Of a stretch of DNA of 64,000 bases, positions 20,374 to 49,993 are shown in pieces. The notes below the pieces were generated by a model. That model worked only from the letters and a program-made list of their open reading frames with translations, had not been told where the DNA came from and did not search any database. The position numbers and the translations under genes are program-made. Positions within the stretch are counted from its first letter, which is position 1. Each line of letters opens with the position of its first letter. The stretch comes from Capillimicrobium parvum (GTDB taxonomy: Bacteria; Actinomycetota; Thermoleophilia; Solirubrobacterales; Solirubrobacteraceae): positions 1,550,001 to 1,614,000 of the forward strand of contig NZ_CP087164.1 of assembly GCF_021172045.1 (NCBI RefSeq), read 5' to 3'.

Positions 20374-20951
20374 GGGCCCGGCGCGTGAAGGGCCTCAAGC
20401 GCGGCGAGCGCATGGACGGCGCCGTCGAGCGCATCGTCGAGGTCCGCCTCGATGAGCTCCTCGGCTTCATGCCGAAGGCCGCCGATCCCGCGCAGGTCGC
20501 CGCGCTCCACGACATGCGCATCGCGGCCAAGCGCCTGCGCTACGTGCTCGAGCTGACGTCGTTCAGCTTCGGCCCGTACGCCGAGCGGGCGGCCAAGCGG
20601 GCGAAGGACCTCCAGGACCTCATCGGCGAGATCCACGACTGCGATGTCACGCTGCCCCGCATCGAGGCGATGCGCGAGGAGCTCATGGCCGCCGACGCCG
20701 CCGAGCTCGTCCGCCGCGCGGGCGAGGACGACGACCTCGACCCGTCGCTGGCCGGCGGCGCGCCGCACGCCGAGGCGTGGCGGGGCCTGGAGACGGTGAT
20801 CGTCCACCTGGCGGCCCGGCGCGACCTCCTGCACCAGCGCTTCCTCGAGCTGTGGCGCAAGCTGGAGCGCGAGGGGTTCGCCGCCCGGTTGCGCTACGCG
20901 ATCACCGAACGTGCACAACCGGCGGATAGCATCGCCGCGGAGGACGGATGA
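20370..20951 (+). CDS. CHAD domain, C-terminal half
   Basis: A 193-residue helical protein that carries the second CHAD motif, LHDMRIAAKRLRYVLEL, at ~49-65, with further basic helices (YAERAAKRAKDLQDLIGE). Together with the preceding gene it makes up one standard two-motif CHAD domain split over two chains, in a -1 relative frame, joined by ATGA. Its own stop overlaps the ppk start by 4 nt. The likely role is binding polyphosphate or tethering the kinase and phosphatase to granules (inference from family and operon). Confidence 0.87.
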   Translation: MRARRVKGLKRGERMDGAVERIVEVRLDELLGFMPKAADPAQVAALHDMRIAAKRLRYVLELTSFSFGPYAERAAKRAKDLQDLIGEIHDCDVTLPRIEAMREELMAADAAELVRRAGEDDDLDPSLAGGAPHAEAWRGLETVIVHLAARRDLLHQRFLELWRKLEREGFAARLRYAITERAQPADSIAAEDG

Positions 20952-23119
20952 CCAGCCCAGATCCCGTGAGCGAGCAGAACCCGATCTCCGCCGTCTCGAC
21001 CGCGGAGTTCGACATCGAGGCGCTGGTCCCGTCCAAGCCGGCGGCGGTCCTCGACGACCCCACGCTGTTCTTCAACCGCGAGCTGTCGTGGGTGGAGTTC
21101 AACGAGCGCGTGCTGACGCTCGCGGAGGACCCGGACGTGCCGCTCATGGAGCGGCTGAAGTTCGCGGCGATCTACGCCTCGAACCTCGACGAGTTCTTCA
21201 TGATCCGCGTCGCCGGCCTGCACGACCAGGTCGACGCGGGAATCGCCGACCCGCTCGCCGACGGCAAGACGCCCGCCGAGACCCTGGACGCGCTGCGCGA
21301 GCGCCTCGAGGCGCTCGAGCGGCGCCACATGCGCTGCGTCGGACAGGACCTGCTGCCCGCGCTGGCCGAGCACGGCATCCGGATCGTCGACTACGACGCG
21401 GTCAACGGCACGCAGCGCGAGGCGCTGGCCGAGCGCTACCGGCGCCAGATCTTCCCGGTCCTCACGCCGCTCGCCGTCGGCCTCGGCCGGCCGTTCCCGT
21501 ACATCTCCAACCTCTCGCTGAGCCTCGCGGTGCTCGTGCGCGACCCCGTCACCGGCCATCGCACGTTCGCCCGCGTAAAGGTGCCCAAGGAGATGCTTCC
21601 GCGCTTCGTCGAGCTCGACGGCGACGAGCTGGCGTTCGTCCCGCTCGAGCAGGTCATCGCGGCGCAGCTCGACTCGCTGTTCCCGGGCATGGAGATCGTC
21701 GACCATGGCATCTTCCGGGTCACCCGTGACGCCGACTTCGAGGTGTCCGACGAGGCCGACGACCTGCTGCGCGCCGTCGAGGCCGAGCTGCGCCGCCGCC
21801 GCTTCGGCGAGGTCGTCCGCGTCGAGGTCGCCGCCGGCATGGACCCCGAGCTGCGGGCCTACCTGACCGAGGCCCTGGAGGTCGAGGAGCGCCAGGTCTA
21901 CGACATCGAGGGCCTGCTCGACTGCCAGGACCTGTGGCAGATCGTCGGGTTGCCGGGCCTCCTCGAGCTGCGCGACCCGCCGTGGACCCCGGTCACCCAG
22001 CCGCGCCTGCAGGACGACGAGGGCCAGCCGCCCGACGCGTTCGCGGTGCTGCGCGCCGGCGACGTGCTCGTCCACCACCCCTACGACTCGTTCACGACGT
22101 CGGTCGAGCGGTTCGTCAACCAGGCCGTCGAGGACCCCGACGTCCTGGCGATCAAGATGACCGTGTACCGCACCAGCGACGACACGCCGCTGATGCCCGC
22201 GCTCATCCGCGCGTCCGAGCGCGGCAAGCAGGCGGTCTGCCTCGTGGAGCTCAAGGCGCGCTTCGACGAGCGGGCGAACATCGGCTGGGCGCGCGCGCTA
22301 GAGCAGGCCGGGGTGCACGTCGTGTACGGCCACCCGGCGCTGAAGACCCACGCCAAGTCGATCCTCGTCGTCCGCCGGGAGGGCGACGGGGTGCGCCACT
22401 ACGTGCACGTCGGCACGGGCAACTACCACCCGACGACCGCCCGGCTGTACACCGACTTCGGGCTGTTCACGACGGACCCCGAGATCGGCGCGGACGTCGC
22501 CGACATGTTCAACTACCTCACCGGCTACGCGCGCCCACGGCGCTTTCGCAAGGTGCTGCTCGCACCCGCCCACCTGCGCGACGGGATCCTCGAGGAGATC
22601 GACCGCACGATCGACGCCCTCGAGCGCGGCGAGCACGCGCGGATCCGAATGAAGATGAACTCGCTCGTGGACCGGCGCTGCATCCGCGCGCTGTACCGCG
22701 CGTCCCAGGCCGGGGTCCCGGTGGAGCTCAACATCCGCGGGATCTGCTGCCTGCGTCCCGGCCTGCAGGACGTCAGCGAGAACATCCGGGTCGTGTCGGT
22801 CGTCGGGCGCTTCCTCGAGCACTCGCGCGTGTTCGCGTTCGAGCGCGGCGACGAGCAGCGGGTGCTCATCGGCTCCGCCGACCTCATGCCGCGCAACCTC
22901 GACACGCGCGTCGAGCTCGTCGCGCCCGTGGACGACCCGCGGCTGCGCGACGACCTGCTCGACACGCTCGACCGGTGCCTGGCCGACGACTCCAATGCGT
23001 GGGACCTCGACTCCGACGGAACCTGGACCCGGCGCGAACCGCAGGGGCCCGAACCCCGCAGCGTGCAGCGCGAGCTGATGCTCGGGCACGCCGCGCGCGC
23101 GGCCGAAGAGCGTTCCTAG
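20948..23119 (+). CDS. ppk: polyphosphate kinase 1
   Basis: A 723-residue enzyme making polyphosphate reversibly from ATP. Domains run N (FFNRELSWVEFNERVL), head (TPLAVGLGRPFPYISNLS), C1 and C2. The autophosphorylated His is in ALKTHAKS (about residue 468). The phosphate-site GTGNYHPTTARLYTDFGLF and the second conserved His in FLEHSRVFAFERGD are present. Slightly longer than the E. coli enzyme. Last gene of the operon with ppx and the two CHAD halves, so synthesis, degradation and binding of polyphosphate are expressed together. Confidence 0.97.
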   Translation: MTSPDPVSEQNPISAVSTAEFDIEALVPSKPAAVLDDPTLFFNRELSWVEFNERVLTLAEDPDVPLMERLKFAAIYASNLDEFFMIRVAGLHDQVDAGIADPLADGKTPAETLDALRERLEALERRHMRCVGQDLLPALAEHGIRIVDYDAVNGTQREALAERYRRQIFPVLTPLAVGLGRPFPYISNLSLSLAVLVRDPVTGHRTFARVKVPKEMLPRFVELDGDELAFVPLEQVIAAQLDSLFPGMEIVDHGIFRVTRDADFEVSDEADDLLRAVEAELRRRRFGEVVRVEVAAGMDPELRAYLTEALEVEERQVYDIEGLLDCQDLWQIVGLPGLLELRDPPWTPVTQPRLQDDEGQPPDAFAVLRAGDVLVHHPYDSFTTSVERFVNQAVEDPDVLAIKMTVYRTSDDTPLMPALIRASERGKQAVCLVELKARFDERANIGWARALEQAGVHVVYGHPALKTHAKSILVVRREGDGVRHYVHVGTGNYHPTTARLYTDFGLFTTDPEIGADVADMFNYLTGYARPRRFRKVLLAPAHLRDGILEEIDRTIDALERGEHARIRMKMNSLVDRRCIRALYRASQAGVPVELNIRGICCLRPGLQDVSENIRVVSVVGRFLEHSRVFAFERGDEQRVLIGSADLMPRNLDTRVELVAPVDDPRLRDDLLDTLDRCLADDSNAWDLDSDGTWTRREPQGPEPRSVQRELMLGHAARAAEERS

Positions 23120-34513: not shown

Positions 34514-34564
34514 GCTTCACCGCCTCTTCACCGGAACTCCCTGCACACGGACCACTCTGGCTCC

Positions 34565-35464
34565 ATGCAAGGAGATCCGAAGATCGATGAGCGGCTCGGG
34601 CTGAACGTCCCTCGTGAGACGTGGCCGACCCCGCCGCTCCTGAAGGCCTACGAAGCAGCCGGCTTCGCCTGGGTCCAGGTCCACACCCCGCCGATCGCGA
34701 TGCTGGCCGATCGCGAGCGCGCCCGCCAGCACGCCCGCGCGCTGCGGGCGGCGCTCGACACGACCGGCCTGCGGCTGCTGATCCACGGCCCCGACGACCT
34801 CAGCGCGGGCACGGAGCTGCACGACCGGGCGTTCGGCGGCCTGCTCGACTACGCGGCCGAGGCGCGGGCCGAGCTGATCGTCTACCACGGGCTGAACTTC
34901 CGCAGCGCGGAGGACGCGCCGTCCGCGCGGGCGCTGGCCGACCGCGTCGAGCTCGAGGAGGCGTCGCTGCGCCGCCGCGCGACGGTCGCGCAGCGGCTCG
35001 GCGTGCGCCTGTGCGTCGAGAACCTCGCGCCGGTGTACCCCGGGCCGCCCCGCGTCTGCCACGACCCGGCCGCGGTCAGCGCCCTCGTGCGGCGCATCGC
35101 GATGCCGAGCGTCGCGATGCTGTTCGACGTCGGCCACGGGCACATCGCCGCCGCGCTGCGTCGCGACGACCTGCCGAGCCTGCTCGCGCCCGTGCTCGGC
35201 GACGTCGGCCTGTTCCACCTGCACGACAACCTCGGGGCGCGGCGCCACGACGTGCAGGCGCCGGGCGTCGACCCGCTGCGCCTCGACCTGCACCTGCCGC
35301 TGGGCGCCGGGACGCTGCCGTGGATTCGGGTGGCCGCCACGCTGCGCGACCACGACGCGCCCCTGATGCTGGAGATCGGCGCCGGCGTCCGCCAGGAGCC
35401 GCTGGTGCTCGGCCGGTCCGCGCGGGCGGCGTTCGGCGAGGCCAGGGCCTCGGTGCCGGCGTAG
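34565..35464 (+). CDS. TIM-barrel protein, sugar phosphate isomerase/epimerase family
   Basis: 299 residues of the xylose isomerase-like/AP endonuclease 2 fold (PF01261). Barrel strands and metal-site residues are visible: LIVYHGLNFRS (His), RLCVENLAPVYPGPPR (Glu), SVAMLFDVGHGHIAAALRR (Asp, His), VGLFHLHDNLG (His, Asp) and APLMLEIGAG (Glu). The metal centre thus looks complete. Substrate unknown. Ends at the perfect hairpin 35487-35518. Confidence 0.85.
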   Translation: MQGDPKIDERLGLNVPRETWPTPPLLKAYEAAGFAWVQVHTPPIAMLADRERARQHARALRAALDTTGLRLLIHGPDDLSAGTELHDRAFGGLLDYAAEARAELIVYHGLNFRSAEDAPSARALADRVELEEASLRRRATVAQRLGVRLCVENLAPVYPGPPRVCHDPAAVSALVRRIAMPSVAMLFDVGHGHIAAALRRDDLPSLLAPVLGDVGLFHLHDNLGARRHDVQAPGVDPLRLDLHLPLGAGTLPWIRVAATLRDHDAPLMLEIGAGVRQEPLVLGRSARAAFGEARASVPA

Positions 35465-37653: not shown

Positions 37654-37692
37654 CTTCACGACATCTTCACGGGTCGGGCACGGGAACTTCAC
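37654..37692 (+). promoter_or_regulatory. PHO box, four 11-bp units
   Basis: CTTCAC at 37654, CTTCAC at 37665, GGGCAC at 37676 and CTTCAC at 37687, all in one 11-bp register. It lies between the divergent zinc-ribbon gene (start 37612) and pstS (start 37761), so may control both. Direct TTCAC-type repeats at 11 bp are what PhoB-class regulators bind. Confidence 0.8.
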
Positions 37693-43267: not shown

Positions 43268-43915
43268 TCAGCGGCGCGTGCCCGCGCGGCGCTTGAGGGA
43301 GATGCCCTCGAGCACGTGGGCCACCCGCTCGCACGCGTCGACCGCGCACTCGAGCGAGTCGAAGACGTCCTTCCAGCGGATCACGACCATCGGGTCGACG
43401 CCGTCGGCGAACAGAGACGCGACCGCCCCGCGAGAGATCCGGTCGCCCTCGTTCTCGAGCCGGTGGATCTCGATGAGGTACGGACCCATGTCGGTGTCCG
43501 CACGCAGCGCGGTGAGCGCATTCGCGACCTGGGCGGCGCCGTCGACGAGCACGTCGGCCATCGCCACCGCCTGCTCCATGGGCGCCTCGACGCCGTAGAG
43601 GCCGAGCCGGTCCGCGGTCTCCTCCGCGTAGTCGACGATGTCGTCGAGGGCGGTCGCGAGCGCGTGGCCGTCGTTGGAGTCGATCGGCGCCCGGCCCTGG
43701 GACGCGCCGTTGAGCCGGTGGATCACGTCGTGCGCGATCCGGTCGCCCTCGTGCTCGAGCTCGCGCAGATCGCCGGCCAGATCGGCGCGCTCCGGGTAGT
43801 CCGTGACGAGGTCGCGCAGCACCAGCGCGGTGCGGTGGACGTTGGCGCCCGATTCCTCCAGCAGCTCCAACGGACCTTCGTCGATGGGCGGGCGGCGGCG
43901 CAGCAACGGTCGCAT
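43268..43915 (-). CDS. DUF47 (PhoU-like, Pit accessory) protein
   Basis: 215 residues, a PhoU-like helical bundle of the DUF47/PF01865 group: DLRELEHEGDRIAHDVIHRL and IHRLENEGDRISRGAVASL are the two metal-binding E-x3-D helices. Members usually sit next to Pit phosphate transporters and affect their activity. No pit gene is in this window. I chose ATG 43915 (MRPLLRRRPPIDEG). It is divergent from the receiverless PhoB-like gene, with the 11-bp repeat box between. Confidence 0.88.
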   Translation of the reverse strand: MRPLLRRRPPIDEGPLELLEESGANVHRTALVLRDLVTDYPERADLAGDLRELEHEGDRIAHDVIHRLNGASQGRAPIDSNDGHALATALDDIVDYAEETADRLGLYGVEAPMEQAVAMADVLVDGAAQVANALTALRADTDMGPYLIEIHRLENEGDRISRGAVASLFADGVDPMVVIRWKDVFDSLECAVDACERVAHVLEGISLKRRAGTRR

Positions 43916-43945: not shown

Positions 43946-43985
43946 GTTCACGATTTCTTCACAGAAGCTTCACCGGCGGGTAACT
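43946..43985. promoter_or_regulatory. PHO box, four 11-bp units
   Basis: TTCAC at 43947, 43958 and 43969 and GTAAC at 43980, in one 11-bp register. It lies 31 bp from the DUF47 start (minus) and 35 bp before the receiverless PhoB-like start (plus), so may act on both. Confidence 0.8.
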
Positions 43986-44019
43986 GAGATGTCGGCTTCC
44001 GCACGCGAGGGTGCCCGGC

Positions 44020-44337
44020 ATGGAGGCGACATCCGACGTCATCCGCTCCGGCGAGATCGAGATCCGCACCTCGGACGGCCTCGTGCTGGCGGGTGGTCGC
44101 GTGGTGTCCATGTCGGTGCGGGAGTTCCGGCTGCTGTGCGCGCTGGTGGCCCGCGAGGGCCGCATCGTCGCGCGCGAGGACCTGTACCGCGCGGCGTGGG
44201 AGGCCCCGCTGCGCGACGGCGACCGCTCGGTCGACGTATACGTGCACAAGCTGCGCGTGAAGCTCGAGAACGCGCTGCCGGGCCAGGCGTTCATCCACAC
44301 GCACTTCGGGTTCGGCTACCGGTTCGCCCCGCGATGA
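44020..44337 (+). CDS. PhoB-like DNA-binding protein without receiver domain
   Basis: 105 residues: only the OmpR/PhoB winged-helix domain. SVREFRLLCALVAREGRIV, SVDVYVHKLRVKLENALPG and IHTHFGFGYRFAPR are present, and the last two segments are close to those of the full regulator at 49151-49993. No receiver precedes it: the upstream 104 bp is promoter with the PHO box. It is a complete gene, not a truncation (ATG 44020, GAGG 9 nt upstream). It may compete with or assist the full regulator on the same boxes. Confidence 0.85.
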   Translation: MEATSDVIRSGEIEIRTSDGLVLAGGRVVSMSVREFRLLCALVAREGRIVAREDLYRAAWEAPLRDGDRSVDVYVHKLRVKLENALPGQAFIHTHFGFGYRFAPR

Positions 44338-44364: not shown

Positions 44365-44403
44365 CTTCACCGGCTTTTCACAACTCGGTGACAGCCCGAT
44401 AAC
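44365..44403 (+). promoter_or_regulatory. PHO box, four 11-bp units
   Basis: CTTCAC at 44365, TTTCAC at 44376, GGTGAC at 44387 and GATAAC at 44398, one 11-bp register, 63 bp upstream of the second pstS start. The first two units match the consensus well; the last two drift like those at 43.98 and 36.2 kb. Confidence 0.75.
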
Positions 44404-44465
44404 AGGCTTGCGCTCGTGCGTTGCGAGCCTCGGGCCTCAATGGGAATGACCAGGAAAGGAACCCC

Positions 44466-45590
44466 GTGAGGCATCGCAAGCTTCTCGCCGTCGCGTGCAC
44501 CGGTGCGGTGGCGCTCGGCGTCGCCGCGTGCGGCAGCGACAGCAACTCCAGCACCTCGGCCAGCACCGGTTCGAGCGGCAGCACCGCAGCGAGCACCGAG
44601 CTCGGCGGCACCATCAACGGCGCGGGCGCCACGTTCCCGCAGCCCGTCTACAGCGAGTGGGCCAACCGCTTCAAGAAGTCGGCCGGGACCACGGTCAACT
44701 ACCAGGGCATCGGCTCGGGCGGTGGCATCGCCCAGTTCACCGAGGGGACCGTCGACTTCGGCGCGACCGACGCGCCGATGACCGACGAGGAGGAGACCGC
44801 CGCCAAGAAGAAGGGCGAGCCGGTCCACGTCCCGACGGTGCTCGGCGCCGTCACCGTCGCCTACAACGTGCCGGGGGTCGACAAGGGCCTCAAGCTCGAC
44901 GGCGCGACGGTCGCCAACATCTTCCTCGGCAAGGTCAAGAAGTGGAACGACCCGGCGATCGCCGGCCTCAACGACGGGGTCGACCTGCCGGACACCGCGA
45001 TCACCGTCTGCCACCGCTCCGACGAGTCGGGCACCACGAAGAACTTCACCCAGTTCCTTGCGGACTACTCGCCCGAGTGGGAGAGCGGCCCCGGCGTTGA
45101 CAAGTCGGTGCAGTGGCCGACCGGCACCGGCGCGAAGGGCAACGACGGCGTCGCGGGCTGCGTGAAGCAGACCGAGGGGTCGGTGGGGTACGTCGAGCAG
45201 GCCTACGCCCTGCAGAACAACTTCAGCACCGCCGCGATCAAGAACAAGGACGGCCAGTTCGTCGAGCCCACCCTGGAGGCAACCTCGGCCGCCGGTCAGG
45301 GCGCGTCGCCGCCGGCCGACCTGCGCTTCACCACGATCAACGCCCCGGGCGCGACGACCTACCCGATCACCGCCGTCACGTTCCTCCTGGTCTACCAGGA
45401 CATGTGCAAGGCCGGCATGAGCAAGGACAACGCGGCTCGCGTCAAGGCGTGGCTGGACTACGCGCTCGGCGACGGCCAGCAGGTCGCGCCGGAGCTCGAG
45501 TACGCGCCGCTCCCCGACCCGATCAAGAAGTCCGCGCAGCAGCAGGTGGACGGCCTGCAGTGCAACGGGAGCGCGATCGCGACCTCCTGA
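44466..45590 (+). CDS. pstS: phosphate-binding lipoprotein PstS (second copy)
   Basis: 374 residues. The lipobox GVAAC comes after a short signal peptide (LLAVACTGAVALGVAAC) and is followed by a Ser/Thr linker. The phosphate site shows GAGATFPQPVYSEWANRFKK, GSGGGIAQFTEGTVDFGATD and RSDESGTTKNFTQFL. This is the classical long PstS, unlike the short first copy. GTG 44466 follows AAAGGA. Starts pstS-C-A-B-phoU, five genes with overlaps or at most a single-base gap, driven from the box at 44365-44403. Confidence 0.96.
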   Translation: MRHRKLLAVACTGAVALGVAACGSDSNSSTSASTGSSGSTAASTELGGTINGAGATFPQPVYSEWANRFKKSAGTTVNYQGIGSGGGIAQFTEGTVDFGATDAPMTDEEETAAKKKGEPVHVPTVLGAVTVAYNVPGVDKGLKLDGATVANIFLGKVKKWNDPAIAGLNDGVDLPDTAITVCHRSDESGTTKNFTQFLADYSPEWESGPGVDKSVQWPTGTGAKGNDGVAGCVKQTEGSVGYVEQAYALQNNFSTAAIKNKDGQFVEPTLEATSAAGQGASPPADLRFTTINAPGATTYPITAVTFLLVYQDMCKAGMSKDNAARVKAWLDYALGDGQQVAPELEYAPLPDPIKKSAQQQVDGLQCNGSAIATS

Positions 45591-46594
45591 TGGCCTCCGC
45601 CCCCGGCACCGTCGAGACCCCCCGCGGCAGCTCTCTGCAGCGGCCGCGGGGGGGTCGGCTTCCCGACCAGCTCCTGAAGTGGGGACTGACGATCCTGTCG
45701 ATCGGGGTCATCGTCCTCATCGCCTACTTCTTCCTGCGGCTCATCGACGAGTCGCGCCCAGTCTTCGCGGAGACGGGGTTCTTCGGCTTCGTCTTCGACA
45801 ACGCCTGGGTGCCGTCCAAGAACCTCTACGGAGCGCTGCCGCTCGTCGTCGGCACGCTCATCACGTCGGCCATCGCGCTGGTGATCGGCGTGCCGATCGC
45901 GGTCGCCACCGCGCTGTTCATCACCGAGCTCTGCCCGGCCCGCGTGAAGGGGCCGCTGACGGTCCTCGTCGAGATGCTCGCTGCGGTGCCGTCGGTCGTC
46001 TACGGCCTGTGGGGCTTCTTCTTCCTCATCCCGAAGCTCCGCCCGGCCGAGCAGTGGTTCTCCGACACCTTCTCGTTCCTGCCGTTCGTCGGCGGGACCG
46101 TGTCCGGCCCCAACTACTTCATCGCCGGGCTGATCCTGGCGATCATGATCATCCCGATCGTCTCGGCGATCTCGCGCGAGGTCATGGCGACCGTGCCCAG
46201 CGAGAACAAGGAGGCGGCGCTCGCGCTCGGCGCGACGCGCTGGGAGATGATCCGCATGGCCGTGCTGCCGTACTCGCGCGGCGGGATCACCGGCGGGGCC
46301 ATGCTCGGCCTCGGCCGGGCGATCGGCGAGACCATCGCCGTGACGATCGTCATCGGCAACGCGCCGGTCATCGGCGACACGATCTTCTCCCAGGGCTACT
46401 CGCTGGCGGCCGTGATCGCCAACGAGTTCGGCGAGGCGGCCTCCGATCCCGTGCACCGCGCGGCGCTCATCGCGGCCGGACTCGTCCTGTTCCTGCTGAC
46501 GCTGTTCGTCAACGCCGGCGCGCGGTGGCTCGTGACGCGGGCCGAGCGCGGGCAGCGGGCGGCGCGCAAGCCGGCGGCCGGGATGGCCGGTTGA
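45590..46594 (+). CDS. pstC: phosphate ABC transporter permease PstC (second copy)
   Basis: 334 residues with six membrane helices (LLKWGLTILSIGVIVLIAYF first). PstC-type MLAAVPSVVYGLWGFFFLIP and the EAA loop EAALALGATRWEMIRMAVLP are present. ATG 45590 overlaps the pstS stop by one base. pstA follows after one base. Confidence 0.96.
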   Translation: MASAPGTVETPRGSSLQRPRGGRLPDQLLKWGLTILSIGVIVLIAYFFLRLIDESRPVFAETGFFGFVFDNAWVPSKNLYGALPLVVGTLITSAIALVIGVPIAVATALFITELCPARVKGPLTVLVEMLAAVPSVVYGLWGFFFLIPKLRPAEQWFSDTFSFLPFVGGTVSGPNYFIAGLILAIMIIPIVSAISREVMATVPSENKEAALALGATRWEMIRMAVLPYSRGGITGGAMLGLGRAIGETIAVTIVIGNAPVIGDTIFSQGYSLAAVIANEFGEAASDPVHRAALIAAGLVLFLLTLFVNAGARWLVTRAERGQRAARKPAAGMAG

Positions 46595-46595
46595 G

Positions 46596-47474
46596 ATGGC
46601 GGTGAGCTCGCTCGTCCTCCCGCCCGTCAGCGGCCGCCGCCGGCGCGCCGACAAGGCCGCCCGCGTGCTCGTCGGCGCCGGCACCGTGGCCGCGCTCGTG
46701 CCGCTCGTCCTGATCCTCTACTACCTGATCAAGGAGGGGCTCGGCGCCTGGAGCTGGGACTTCTTCACGACCGACCCGACCGGCTCGTTCCTCGGCGACC
46801 CCGGCGGCATCAAGAGCGCGATCATCGGCACGGTCCTGATGGTGGCGCTGGCCGCCGCGGTGGCGGTGCCGATCGGCGTGGGCGTCGCGGTGTGGCTCGT
46901 CGAGTTCGGCCGCGAGTCCAAGCTCGCGCTCGCCGTCCGGTACTTCATCGACGTGATGACCGGCGTGCCGTCGGTCGTCTTCGGCCTGTTCGTCTACATC
47001 ACGCTCGTCGTGGGCGGGTTCGGCGGCACGTCGTTCGCCGGCTGGAAGGGCTCGATCGCCCTGGCGCTGCTGATGCTTCCGGTCGTCACGCGCTCGGCGG
47101 AGGTCGTCCTGATGCTCGTGCCGAACACGCTGCGCGAGGCGGCCTACGCGCTCGGCGCGCCACGCTGGAAGGTCGTCTTCCGGATCGTCCTGCCGACCGC
47201 GCTGCCGGGCATGGTCACCGGCGTGCTGCTCGCCGTCGCCCGTGCGGCGGGGGAGACGGCGCCCCTGCTGTTCACGGCGACCATCGTCAACGCGACGACG
47301 TTCAACATGAACGACCGCATGAACTCGCTGCCCGCCCTGATCTTCCAGGACGTCGGGCAGGCGCAGGACCGTCTCGTGGAGATCGCATGGGGCGCCGCGC
47401 TGACGCTCGTGGCGATGGTCCTGATCCTCACCGTCATCGCCCGCCTCGTGCAGAGAAGGAGCCGTCTGTCATGA
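46596..47474 (+). CDS. pstA: phosphate ABC transporter permease PstA (second copy)
   Basis: 292 residues, six membrane helices ([20 protein letters not shown] first). Typical [20 protein letters not shown] and the EAA loop [20 protein letters not shown] are present, with [14 protein letters not shown] near the end. The stop overlaps the pstB start (ATGA). Confidence 0.96.
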
Positions 47475-48349
47475 ACCCCGACATCCCCACTCCGGTGACC
47501 GACGAACCAACGACCGAACCGAGCCGGCCGTCGCGCCCCGTGGCGCCCTCCCTGGCGGCGGCCGCGACCCATGAGGCCCCGGCCCGGGCGATCGAGCGCG
47601 AGGCTCACGCGATCGAGCTGCGAAGCCTGAACGCCTGGTACGGCGCGATGCACTCGATCAAGGACCTCTCGCTCACGTTCCCGGCGAACAAGGCGACGGC
47701 TCTGATCGGCCCGTCCGGATCGGGCAAGTCGACGGTGGTGCGCTGCATCAACCGCATGCACGAGGAGATCCCGGGCGCGCGGGCCGAGGGCGAGGTCATG
47801 CTCGACGCCATCGACGTCTACGACCCCAAGGTCGACGTGGTGGCCGTGCGCCGGGCGATCGGCATGGTCTTCCAGAAGCCGAACCCGTTCCCGACGATGT
47901 CCATCTACGACAACGTCGCGTCCGGCCTGCGGCTCACAGCGCGCAAGGTGCACCACGACCAGGTCGAGAGCGCGCTGCACGGGGCCGGTCTGTGGGAGGA
48001 GGTCAAGGACCGGTTGCGCGAGCCGGGCATCGGGCTGTCGGGCGGTCAGCAGCAGCGGCTGTGCATCGCGCGGGCGCTCGCGGTCGAGCCGGCGGTCATA
48101 CTCATGGACGAGCCGGCCTCGGCGCTCGACCCGATCTCGACCCTGAAGATCGAGCAGCTCGTCGAGGAGCTCAAGTACCGCGTGACCATCGTGATCGTGA
48201 CCCACAACATGCAGCAGGCCGCGCGCGTGGCGGACCAGACCGCGTTCATGCTCGACGGTGAGCTGGTCGAGGTGGGCCCGACGGAGAAGATCTTCACGAA
48301 CCCCGGCGACTCGCGCACGGAGGAGTACGTGACCGGGAAGTTCGGATGA
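47471..48349 (+). CDS. pstB: phosphate ABC transporter ATPase PstB (second copy)
   Basis: 292 residues. Walker A is GPSGSGKST, the signature [17 protein letters not shown], Walker [14 protein letters not shown] and the H-loop [11 protein letters not shown] 45-residue proline- and threonine-rich N-tail precedes the domain ([12 protein letters not shown] begins it). ATG 47471. The stop overlaps phoU (ATGA). Confidence 0.96.
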
Positions 48350-49044
48350 GCGGCGCGGCGGGCGATACGCGGATGCACTTCCGCGAGGCGCTCGTCGAGC
48401 TGGAAGCCCAGGCGCTGGGCGGCATCGACATGGTCGTGCAGCAGCTCGACCGGGCCATGGAGTCGGCGGCACACCAGGACGTCGAGCTGGCGAGCTTCGT
48501 CATCGCCGACGACGACCGGCTCGACGGGCGCTACCTCGAGGTCAACCAGGGGATCCTGTCGCTGATGGCGCTGCAGGCGCCGGTCGCGGGCGACCTGCGG
48601 GTGCTGGCGGCGCTGCTGCACGTCATCAAGCATGTCGAGCGGATGGGCGACCAGTGCGTGAACATCGCCAAGCTCGTGCCGCTCGCCGGCCACGAGCCCC
48701 CGGTTCGGGCCGAGGTGATCGACCGGATCGTCCGGATGGGCCAGTTCGCGCGGTCCGAGGCGCTCCAGTGCAAGACGGCGTTCGCGACCCGCGACGTCGA
48801 GCTGGCCCGCGACCTCGTGCGCCAGGACCGCGAGATCAACCGCCTGAACCGCGAGATCTTCCAGGTGGCGATCGCGATCGGCGACGACCCGGACACGCGC
48901 GAGTGGGCGATGCACATGGTGCTCGTGGCGCGCGCGCTGGAGCGCATCGGCGACAACGCCGTGGACATCGGCGAGCAGACGGCGTTCGTCGTGACGGGGC
49001 TGTTCCGGGAGTTCTCGGATGCCTCGCAGCTCAACGGCACGTGA
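48346..49044 (+). CDS. phoU: PhoU phosphate-signalling protein
   Basis: 232 residues forming two three-helix bundles. The metal-site motifs E/D-x3-D are [19 protein letters not shown] and [20 protein letters not shown]. PhoU links the Pst transporter to the PhoB/PhoR-type system and keeps it off when phosphate is plentiful. It ends the second pst operon; the PhoB-like regulator starts 106 bp later. No kinase gene is in the cluster. Confidence 0.96.
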
Positions 49045-49081: not shown

Positions 49082-49097
49082 TGTGAAGATCCTGTGA
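49082..49097 (+). promoter_or_regulatory. TGTGA direct repeat at 11-bp spacing
   Basis: TGTGA at 49082-49086 and again at 49093-49097, one 11-bp step, 54 bp before the PhoB-like regulator's start. Only two units, and they match the GGTGAC variant rather than CTTCAC, so autoregulation is a weak suggestion. Confidence 0.3.
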
Positions 49098-49150
49098 CTC
49101 TTCGGGCCTTCCGGTCGGTTGCCGGGTGGGCTGAGGACTAAGCTTGCGCC

Positions 49151-49993
49151 ATGGTCGAAGTGATGCATGACGGGGGGCCCGGCGCACCGCTGCGCCTGGC
49201 GGTGATCGATCGGGACACCGGCTTCCTGCAGGTCCTGGGCAAGCGTCTGGACCGTCTCGGCTGGGAGCACCGCGTGCTCGCCAGCGCCGTCTCGCCCGAT
49301 GCGCTCGTCGCGATGCGGCTGAGCGCGGTCGTCGTCGACCTGGCGATCCTCGGCCCGCAGGCGTGGGAATGGCTCGAGCGCACGTGCGCGACGCTGCCCG
49401 GCCTCGGCGTCGTCGTGTGCACCGGCCAGTCGACGGTCGCCCAGCGCGTCCGCGGCCTGCGGTTCGGCGCCGACGACTGGGTGACGAAGCCCTGCCATCC
49501 GGAGGAGGTCATCGCCCGGGTGGAGTCGGTGGTCCGTCGCCGGCGCCGGGCGGAGGCGCGCGTGGACGCCGAGCCGGTGCACGCCGGCGAGATCGAGATC
49601 CGCGCCGACCAGTTCCAGGCGTTCGTCGCCGAGTGCTCGGTGGACCTGACACGCCGCGAGTTCGAGCTGATCGACCTCCTGGCGAGCGCCCAGGGCCGGG
49701 TGCTCGAGCGCGAGGAGATCTACCAGCGGGTCTGGGGCTACGCGATGGCCCGCGGCGACCGCTCGGTGGACGTCTTCGTGCGCAAGCTGCGTCAGAAGCT
49801 CGAGAAGGCCTCGCCCGAGTGGCGCTACATCCACACGCACTTCGGCATCGGATACCGGTTCGCGCCGGAGCCGATGGAGGGCGTGGAGGTCGTGACGCCG
49901 GCTGCGGAGGCGGTCGTGCGGGAGGCCGCGGCGGCGGCGGAGGCCGCTGTGGCGGTCGAGGCGCTCGCGGTCGACGAGCAGCCGGCGCTCTGA
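49151..49993 (+). CDS. PhoB/PhoP-like response regulator
   Basis: 280 residues. The receiver (~14-130) has acidic VIDRD, phosphoacceptor Asp in AVVVDLAILGP and Lys in DDWVTKPCHPEE, so phosphorylation seems possible. The winged-helix domain (~145-240) has CSVDLTRREFELIDLLASAQ, DRSVDVFVRKLRQKLEKA and YIHTHFGIGYRFAPEP. An alanine/valine/glutamate tail of ~35 residues follows. Placed after phoU, it is the likely regulator of the PHO boxes in this island. Start ATG 49151. Confidence 0.92.
   Translation: MVEVMHDGGPGAPLRLAVIDRDTGFLQVLGKRLDRLGWEHRVLASAVSPDALVAMRLSAVVVDLAILGPQAWEWLERTCATLPGLGVVVCTGQSTVAQRVRGLRFGADDWVTKPCHPEEVIARVESVVRRRRRAEARVDAEPVHAGEIEIRADQFQAFVAECSVDLTRREFELIDLLASAQGRVLEREEIYQRVWGYAMARGDRSVDVFVRKLRQKLEKASPEWRYIHTHFGIGYRFAPEPMEGVEVVTPAAEAVVREAAAAAEAAVAVEALAVDEQPAL

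What the first reader, a model, noticed from the sequence alone, without database searches (positions are those of the whole stretch)
44020..44337. PhoB-like DNA-binding domain without receiver next to a full PhoB-like regulator
The 105-residue protein is a complete gene with its own promoter box and ribosome site. Its recognition helix region nearly matches that of the full regulator (DRSVDVYVHKLRVKLE against DRSVDVFVRKLRQKLE). A phosphorylation-independent protein reading the same boxes could damp or prolong the response.
Basis: partly seen in the sequence, partly recalled or inferred. Interest (0 to 1): 0.6.

Follow-up and report, generated by a model that had tools for sequence, protein, structure and literature searches.

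The report
Receiver-less PhoB relative beside phosphate genes
A soil-type actinobacterium of the order Solirubrobacterales, and about three quarters of the genomes sampled from its family, carry a small stand-alone copy of the DNA-binding half of their phosphate regulator, placed behind the same DNA boxes, while the full-size regulator has itself lost part of the usual phosphorylation pocket and has no nearby kinase, so phosphate control here may not follow the textbook kinase route.

Summary
Confirmed: 44020-44337 encodes a complete 105-aa PhoB-type winged helix without a receiver. It is a real, old gene: 74 of 101 sampled family genomes have a match of at least 54% identity, almost always beside pstS or phoU, under purifying selection. 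41 of 49 copies have four 11-bp PHO-box repeats upstream (shuffled: 0/49). The full regulator's gene has none (0/54), so the short gene looks like a Pho-regulon member.

The full regulator's receiver lacks the second acidic-pocket residue in all 48 sequences aligned, and no kinase gene is near it. All 17 other OmpR-type regulators of this genome keep that residue and 16 have a kinase gene nearby. Orthologues in sister orders are canonical; in one family a kinase sits beside phoU-pst.

Best reading: a PHO-box-controlled feedback modulator working with a receiver-degenerate PhoB in a rewired Pho circuit. Most DNA-contact residues are shared; the loop matching PhoB's sigma-contact loop differs consistently. 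I favour damping by site competition, but the sign is undetermined. A RegX3-like two-component pair elsewhere in the genome is an unexcluded rival controller.

The parts
44020..44337 (+). SHORT: 105-aa stand-alone PhoB-type winged-helix DNA-binding protein
   Evidence: Trans_reg_C 70.2 bits, no receiver; model pLDDT 91 matching PhoB/RstA/PhoP DNA-binding domains
43946..43989 (+). Four-unit 11-bp PHO-box array before SHORT
   Evidence: 18/20 core matches, 0/200 shuffles; 41 of 49 SHORT loci have one of 16/20 or more
44365..44408 (+). PHO-box array before pstS, just after the SHORT stop codon
   Evidence: exact core at 44366-44381; sequence
44466..45590 (+). pstS (second pst cluster)
   Evidence: TIGR00975 368 bits, above its cut-off
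45590..48349 (+). pstC, pstA, pstB
   Evidence: ORFs; conserved order in relatives
48346..49044 (+). phoU, the only PhoU gene found in the genome
   Evidence: PF01895 125 bits; genome search finds only this protein's two repeats
49151..49993 (+). Full-length PhoB-like regulator with atypical receiver
   Evidence: Trans_reg_C 83.3 bits, Response_reg 29.6 bits below cut-off 30.2; second acidic residue lost
43268..43915 (-). Divergent PhoU_div/DUF47 gene
   Evidence: PF01865 69.5 bits; divergent from SHORT in many relatives
37654..37670 (+). PHO-box core before the first pst cluster (pstS1 starts about 37761)
   Evidence: exact core TTCACGACATCTTCAC at 37655-37670
34515..34531 (+). PHO-box core before the ORF 34565-35464
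   Evidence: exact core TTCACCGCCTCTTCAC at 34516-34531

Best explanation
SHORT is an old paralogue of the DNA-binding half of the clade's Pho regulator. Shown: it is a conserved gene under purifying selection, sits beside pst/phoU, has a PHO-box array in front of it, and keeps most DNA-contact residues of the regulator. Inferred: its transcription rises with the Pho regulon through that array, and the protein then binds the same 11-bp TTCAC repeats at pst and at its own promoter without any phosphorylation step, having no receiver. Inferred and less sure: because the loop matching PhoB's sigma-contact loop is changed, it occupies repeats without recruiting polymerase in the same way and so limits output (negative feedback by site competition). 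The full regulator is not behind a box and has a degenerate receiver without a nearby kinase, so in this clade phosphate status probably reaches it by something other than a linked PhoR; the single, linked PhoU is the first candidate.
For: Conservation and linkage to pst, phoU and the full regulator. PHO arrays before SHORT 41/49 and pstS 30/38 but full regulator 0/54, shuffles 0. One clade (100/100) with the full regulators, apart from the other regulators of the genome. Shared contact residues R193, V197, R203, mostly K201 and S194, and wing T217-H218; loop residues Y186 and M188 invariant in full regulators and not found in SHORT, with R189 in 47 of 52 SHORT. The sister-order orthologues with the same DNA-binding signature have the same TTCAC motif before pstS, 3 of 3. 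Receiver decay and lack of a linked kinase; published link of second-acid loss with phosphorylation-independent receivers (PMC4395418).
Against: No binding, expression or genetic data. Recognition-helix positions 198 and 200 and wing position 219 differ between SHORT and the full regulator, so affinity or site preference may differ. W184 and mostly G185 are kept in SHORT, so activation is not excluded. Asp63, Thr91 and Lys113 of the full regulator's receiver are still present, so some phosphorylation is not excluded. A RegX3-like two-component pair exists elsewhere.
Confidence: 0.45

Rival explanations
1. SHORT is a co-activator: once induced it binds PHO boxes without needing phosphate and sustains pst expression (positive feedback), standing in for a phosphorylated PhoB.
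For: In E. coli the unphosphorylated receiver silences PhoB's output domain (Ellison and McCleary 2000, title seen in the reference list of PMC3264566), so a free domain can be active; W184 and mostly G185 are kept in SHORT; the array stands before SHORT in the same orientation as before pstS.
Against: The Y186/M188 loop signature, invariant in full regulators and their canonical orthologues, is not found in SHORT; without a receiver it cannot use receiver-driven dimerisation.
Confidence: 0.33
2. The PHO boxes are worked mainly by a canonical RegX3-like two-component pair elsewhere in the genome (5905134-5907255); SHORT and the pst-linked regulator are side players or have other targets.
For: That regulator is the closest tested one to M. 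tuberculosis RegX3 (224 bits), keeps the acidic pair and has a kinase next to it.
Against: It is not linked to pst or phoU, whereas SHORT and/or the full regulator are linked in nearly all relatives mapped; in sister family f9 it is the orthologue of the pst-linked regulator, not of this one, that sits with kinase and pst, as the tree shows.
Confidence: 0.15
3. SHORT is a decaying fragment of a duplicated regulator without function.
For: It lacks a receiver; one same-genus draft genome shows no match at the threshold used.
Against: 74 of 101 family genomes with matches of 54% identity or more and open frames, dN/dS 0.05-0.33, fixed place and promoter array.
Confidence: 0.02

Closest known systems
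PhoB/PhoP/RegX3 regulators of the Pho regulon (OmpR/PhoB family)
   Same: Winged-helix fold and extent (PhoB effector domain 30% identity, TM 0.8), 11-bp direct-repeat PHO boxes before pst genes, linkage to pst and phoU
   Different: SHORT has no receiver; the linked full regulator has an altered pocket and no linked kinase, and neither comes near NCBI's PhoB model cut-off (50 and 104 bits against 296)
Isolated PhoB output domain (E. coli laboratory fragment, PDB 1GXP/1GXQ)
   Same: About 100 residues, receiver-free, same fold
   Different: A laboratory construct; SHORT is a natural, separately encoded, conserved gene behind a PHO box
Atypical OmpR/PhoB-type regulators such as RitR, HP1043, ChxR (PMC4395418, PMC3960148)
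   Same: Like the full regulator here, RitR and HP1043 have a basic residue at the second acidic position; ChxR and HP1043 bind DNA without phosphorylation
   Different: The window regulator keeps the phospho-acceptor Asp, so it is not an aspartate-less receiver by definition; none of these was found described with a receiver-less partner gene or in a Pho regulon

Membership tests
OmpR/PhoB response regulator (for SHORT) | C-terminal winged-helix Trans_reg_C domain | tested here: met
   70.2 bits, cut-off 26.2
OmpR/PhoB response regulator (for SHORT) | N-terminal receiver domain | tested here: not met
   No Response_reg match; start codon and promoter array directly before the winged helix
Canonical PhoB (for the full regulator) | Receiver with two acids after strand 1, phospho-Asp, Thr/Ser and Lys | tested here: not met
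   Asp63, Thr91, Lys113 present, but the second acid is Arg21; no acid there in any of 48 aligned Solirubrobacterales sequences; some f2 and f4 members do keep it
Canonical PhoB (for the full regulator) | Cognate PhoR-type kinase | tested here: inconclusive
   No HisKA or HATPase_c match nearer than about 38 kb, but kinases elsewhere without a neighbouring OmpR-type regulator could act in trans
Canonical PhoB (for the full regulator) | NCBIfam TIGR02154 PhoB cut-off | tested here: not met
   103.8 bits against 296.2
Aspartate-less receiver (ALR) | Phospho-acceptor Asp missing | tested here: not met
   Asp63 present in the window protein; replaced by Asn in L087, L182, L183
ToxR/CadC-type one-component regulator | Winged helix fused to a transmembrane or sensor part | tested here: not met
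   105 aa, winged helix only
PHO-box binding protein | Binds 11-bp TTCAC direct repeats | not testable with these tools
   Only inferred from linked boxes and shared contact residues

The most novel reading that the evidence does not exclude
Solirubrobacterales run their Pho regulon without a PhoR-PhoB phosphorelay: PhoU (or Pst-PhoU) signals directly to a receiver-degenerate PhoB, and a separately encoded receiver-less PhoB domain, itself behind PHO boxes, sets gain or duration.
Probability: 0.3. Interest if true: 0.75.

Novelty: new variant of a known kind. Interest (0 to 1): 0.5.

Why it matters
Phosphate-starvation control by PhoR-PhoB is a textbook two-component system. Here an order of soil actinobacteria seems to have eroded the phosphorylation pocket and lost the linked kinase while keeping the DNA-binding code and PhoU, and it has a stand-alone DNA-binding copy behind the same boxes. 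Orthologues in sister orders remain canonical, so the change can be placed on the tree and tested directly.

Tried and rejected
Pseudogene or recent truncation: rejected by conservation, dN/dS, position and promoter. Derivation of SHORT from the clade's own full regulator: the tree gives one joint clade, but SHORT falls outside the full regulators, canonical ones included (100/99), so the split looks old; few columns and uneven rates make this uncertain. Kinase near the cluster in relatives: the one hit (L099) is an opposite-strand pair whose regulator resembles the one at 4735855 of the own genome (73%), not part of the cluster. The SHxFHN C-terminal tail of SHORT in many relatives: probably not a protein motif but the pstS PHO box running into the 3' end of the gene (seen by eye, not tested separately). 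Two literature searches for receiver-less PhoB-type regulators and one for phosphate regulation in Solirubrobacter gave nothing relevant; the library is open-access only. The AlphaFold model of the full regulator is only moderate (pLDDT 76.5, pTM 0.49), so nothing was drawn from its domain arrangement.

Full report
What is there. The window lies at 1550001-1614000 of a 5.95-Mb single-contig genome. Named relatives place it in Solirubrobacterales. The ORF at 44020-44337 (here SHORT) is a complete 105-aa gene with a Trans_reg_C winged helix (70.2 bits) and no receiver. Its predicted structure is confident (pLDDT 91) and matches the DNA-binding domains of RstA, PhoB, PrrA and PhoP. Gene order in the window: a first pst cluster (37.7-41.4 kb), a DUF47/PhoU_div gene on the minus strand, SHORT, pstS-pstC-pstA-pstB, phoU, full regulator.

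It is a real, conserved gene. Of 101 sampled family genomes, 74 have a match of 54% identity or more (my count of the rows); full regulators reach at most 52%. Matches of 45-59% identity also occur in sister families f2 and f3 of the same order. In 53 of the 54 mapped loci that hold it (L066-L120), SHORT sits beside the pst genes or phoU; in L080 it follows the full regulator. Where no pst cluster follows SHORT (L096, L099, L102, L120), SHORT, phoU and the full regulator still stay together. Frames carry no stops and dN/dS is 0.05-0.33 in five pairs.

The promoter. Four 11-bp units lie 74 to 31 bp before the ATG. Across non-duplicate Solirubrobacterales loci, 41 of 49 SHORT genes have an array of at least 16/20 (shuffled sequence: 0 of 49) and 30 of 38 pstS genes have one of at least 14/20. 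None of 54 full-regulator genes and none of the pstA, pstB, pstC or DUF47 genes reach 14/20; phoU does in 4 of 60. So SHORT looks like a Pho-regulon member and the full regulator does not. Genome-wide there are only seven exact TTCAC-N6-TTCAC cores, five of them in this window. A near-match triplet precedes a DUF47-PiT operon at 3345835-3345861. The 11-bp direct-repeat form is the established PHO-box form in E. coli, Streptomyces and others (PMC4415409; PMC7866108).

The full regulator is not an ordinary PhoB. Its receiver scores just below Pfam's cut-off (29.6 against 30.2). Where canonical receivers have two acids after strand 1, it has Asp20-Arg21. In the 48-row alignment of Solirubrobacterales receivers the first Asp is invariant and the second position carries no acid in any row (R, S, T, A, N, V, G or L); the MPxxDG-type segment is gone and the usual Tyr/Phe is Trp. 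All 17 other OmpR-type regulators of the same genome keep the second acid. Combining positions, 16 of those 17 have a kinase domain within about 2 kb, while the Pho regulator's nearest is about 38 kb away. PMC4395418 reports that in many aspartate-less receivers (RitR, HP1043) this second acid is replaced by a basic residue and that the position is crucial for coordinating metal and phospho-Asp. The phospho-acceptor Asp63 is still present in the window protein, so 'cannot be phosphorylated' is inference.

When it changed. Orthologues in other orders of the class share the DNA-binding signature (GDRSVDVFVR; THYG or THHG wing) but have canonical receivers (EDD, LMLP-DG, Tyr/Phe), and in family f9 one sits beside a kinase, phoU and pst (L170-L172), with the same box motif before pstS. 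Within Solirubrobacterales the pocket decays in different ways: second acid lost in f1; acids kept but Asp replaced by Asn in f4 (L182, L183); some f2 members still have both acids. This suggests a relaxed need for phosphorylation. The tree joins SHORT, a further stand-alone type, the full regulators and their canonical orthologues in one clade (100/100) that excludes the other regulators.

How SHORT may work. Mapped on E. coli PhoB (alignment row), R193, D196, V197 and R203 are identical in all SHORT and full-regulator domains, S194 and K201 nearly so, and wing residues T217-H218 are shared by both classes. SHORT differs at 198 (Tyr for Phe, fixed), 200 (His/Ser/Arg for Arg) and 219. In the loop that in PhoB-type regulators faces sigma region 4 (PMC4660055), Tyr186 and Met188 are invariant in full regulators, canonical ones included; SHORT has no Tyr at 186 among its six commonest residues, mostly Leu at 188 (Met in 8 of 52), and Arg189 in 47 of 52. 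This is what one expects of a protein that reads largely the same DNA but touches polymerase differently. I therefore favour a starvation-induced competitor that damps output, with a co-activator as the close rival. None of this has been measured.

Limits. A RegX3-like regulator with an adjacent kinase exists at 5905134-5907255 and could bind the boxes; linkage and phylogeny speak against it being the main Pho regulator but do not exclude it. Several kinases lack a neighbouring OmpR-type regulator and could act in trans. Many relatives are draft or metagenome assemblies, so absences are soft. The dN/dS values come from a few pairs.

Verdict. Observation confirmed; interpretation partly supported. 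The finding grows from 'a short protein beside a normal PhoB' to 'a Pho circuit whose PhoB has an eroded receiver and which has a receiver-less partner'.

Noticed in passing
L075:6917-7231, L076:6898-7200, L087:9465-9749, L088:4972-5319, L098:19046-19333, L101:9914-10207: A second kind of stand-alone PhoB-like DNA-binding domain (VFVRKVR helix), near the DUF47 gene in several relatives and absent from this genome; it groups at the base of the full regulators in the tree.
   Followed up: partly
own genome 3344055-3345861 (L125): A DUF47-PiT phosphate transporter operon preceded by a near-match PHO-box triplet, a likely further Pho-regulon member outside the window.
   Followed up: partly
window 49083-49098 (-): A one-mismatch PHO core on the minus strand between phoU and the full regulator; relatives show no conserved array there.
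   Followed up: partly
window 49490-49510 (receiver residues 113-119, KPCHPEE): Canonical receivers have KPF here; this clade has a strongly conserved KPCHPEE with Cys, near another conserved Cys90. A metal, redox or PhoU contact is conceivable, but some f2 and f3 members have Ala or Ser in place of the Cys.
   Followed up: no
L066-L079, 3' end of SHORT: The pstS PHO box appears to run into the last codons of SHORT in many relatives, giving a conserved-looking SHxFHN tail.
   Followed up: no
L076 (CAMCUD010000002.1): A contig labelled Bifidobacterium breve carries this Solirubrobacterales cluster almost like Svornostia; the species label is probably wrong.
   Followed up: no
window 20948-23119: The ORF resembles a polyphosphate kinase by its N-terminus (recognised from memory, not searched), another phosphate gene in the same region.
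   Followed up: no
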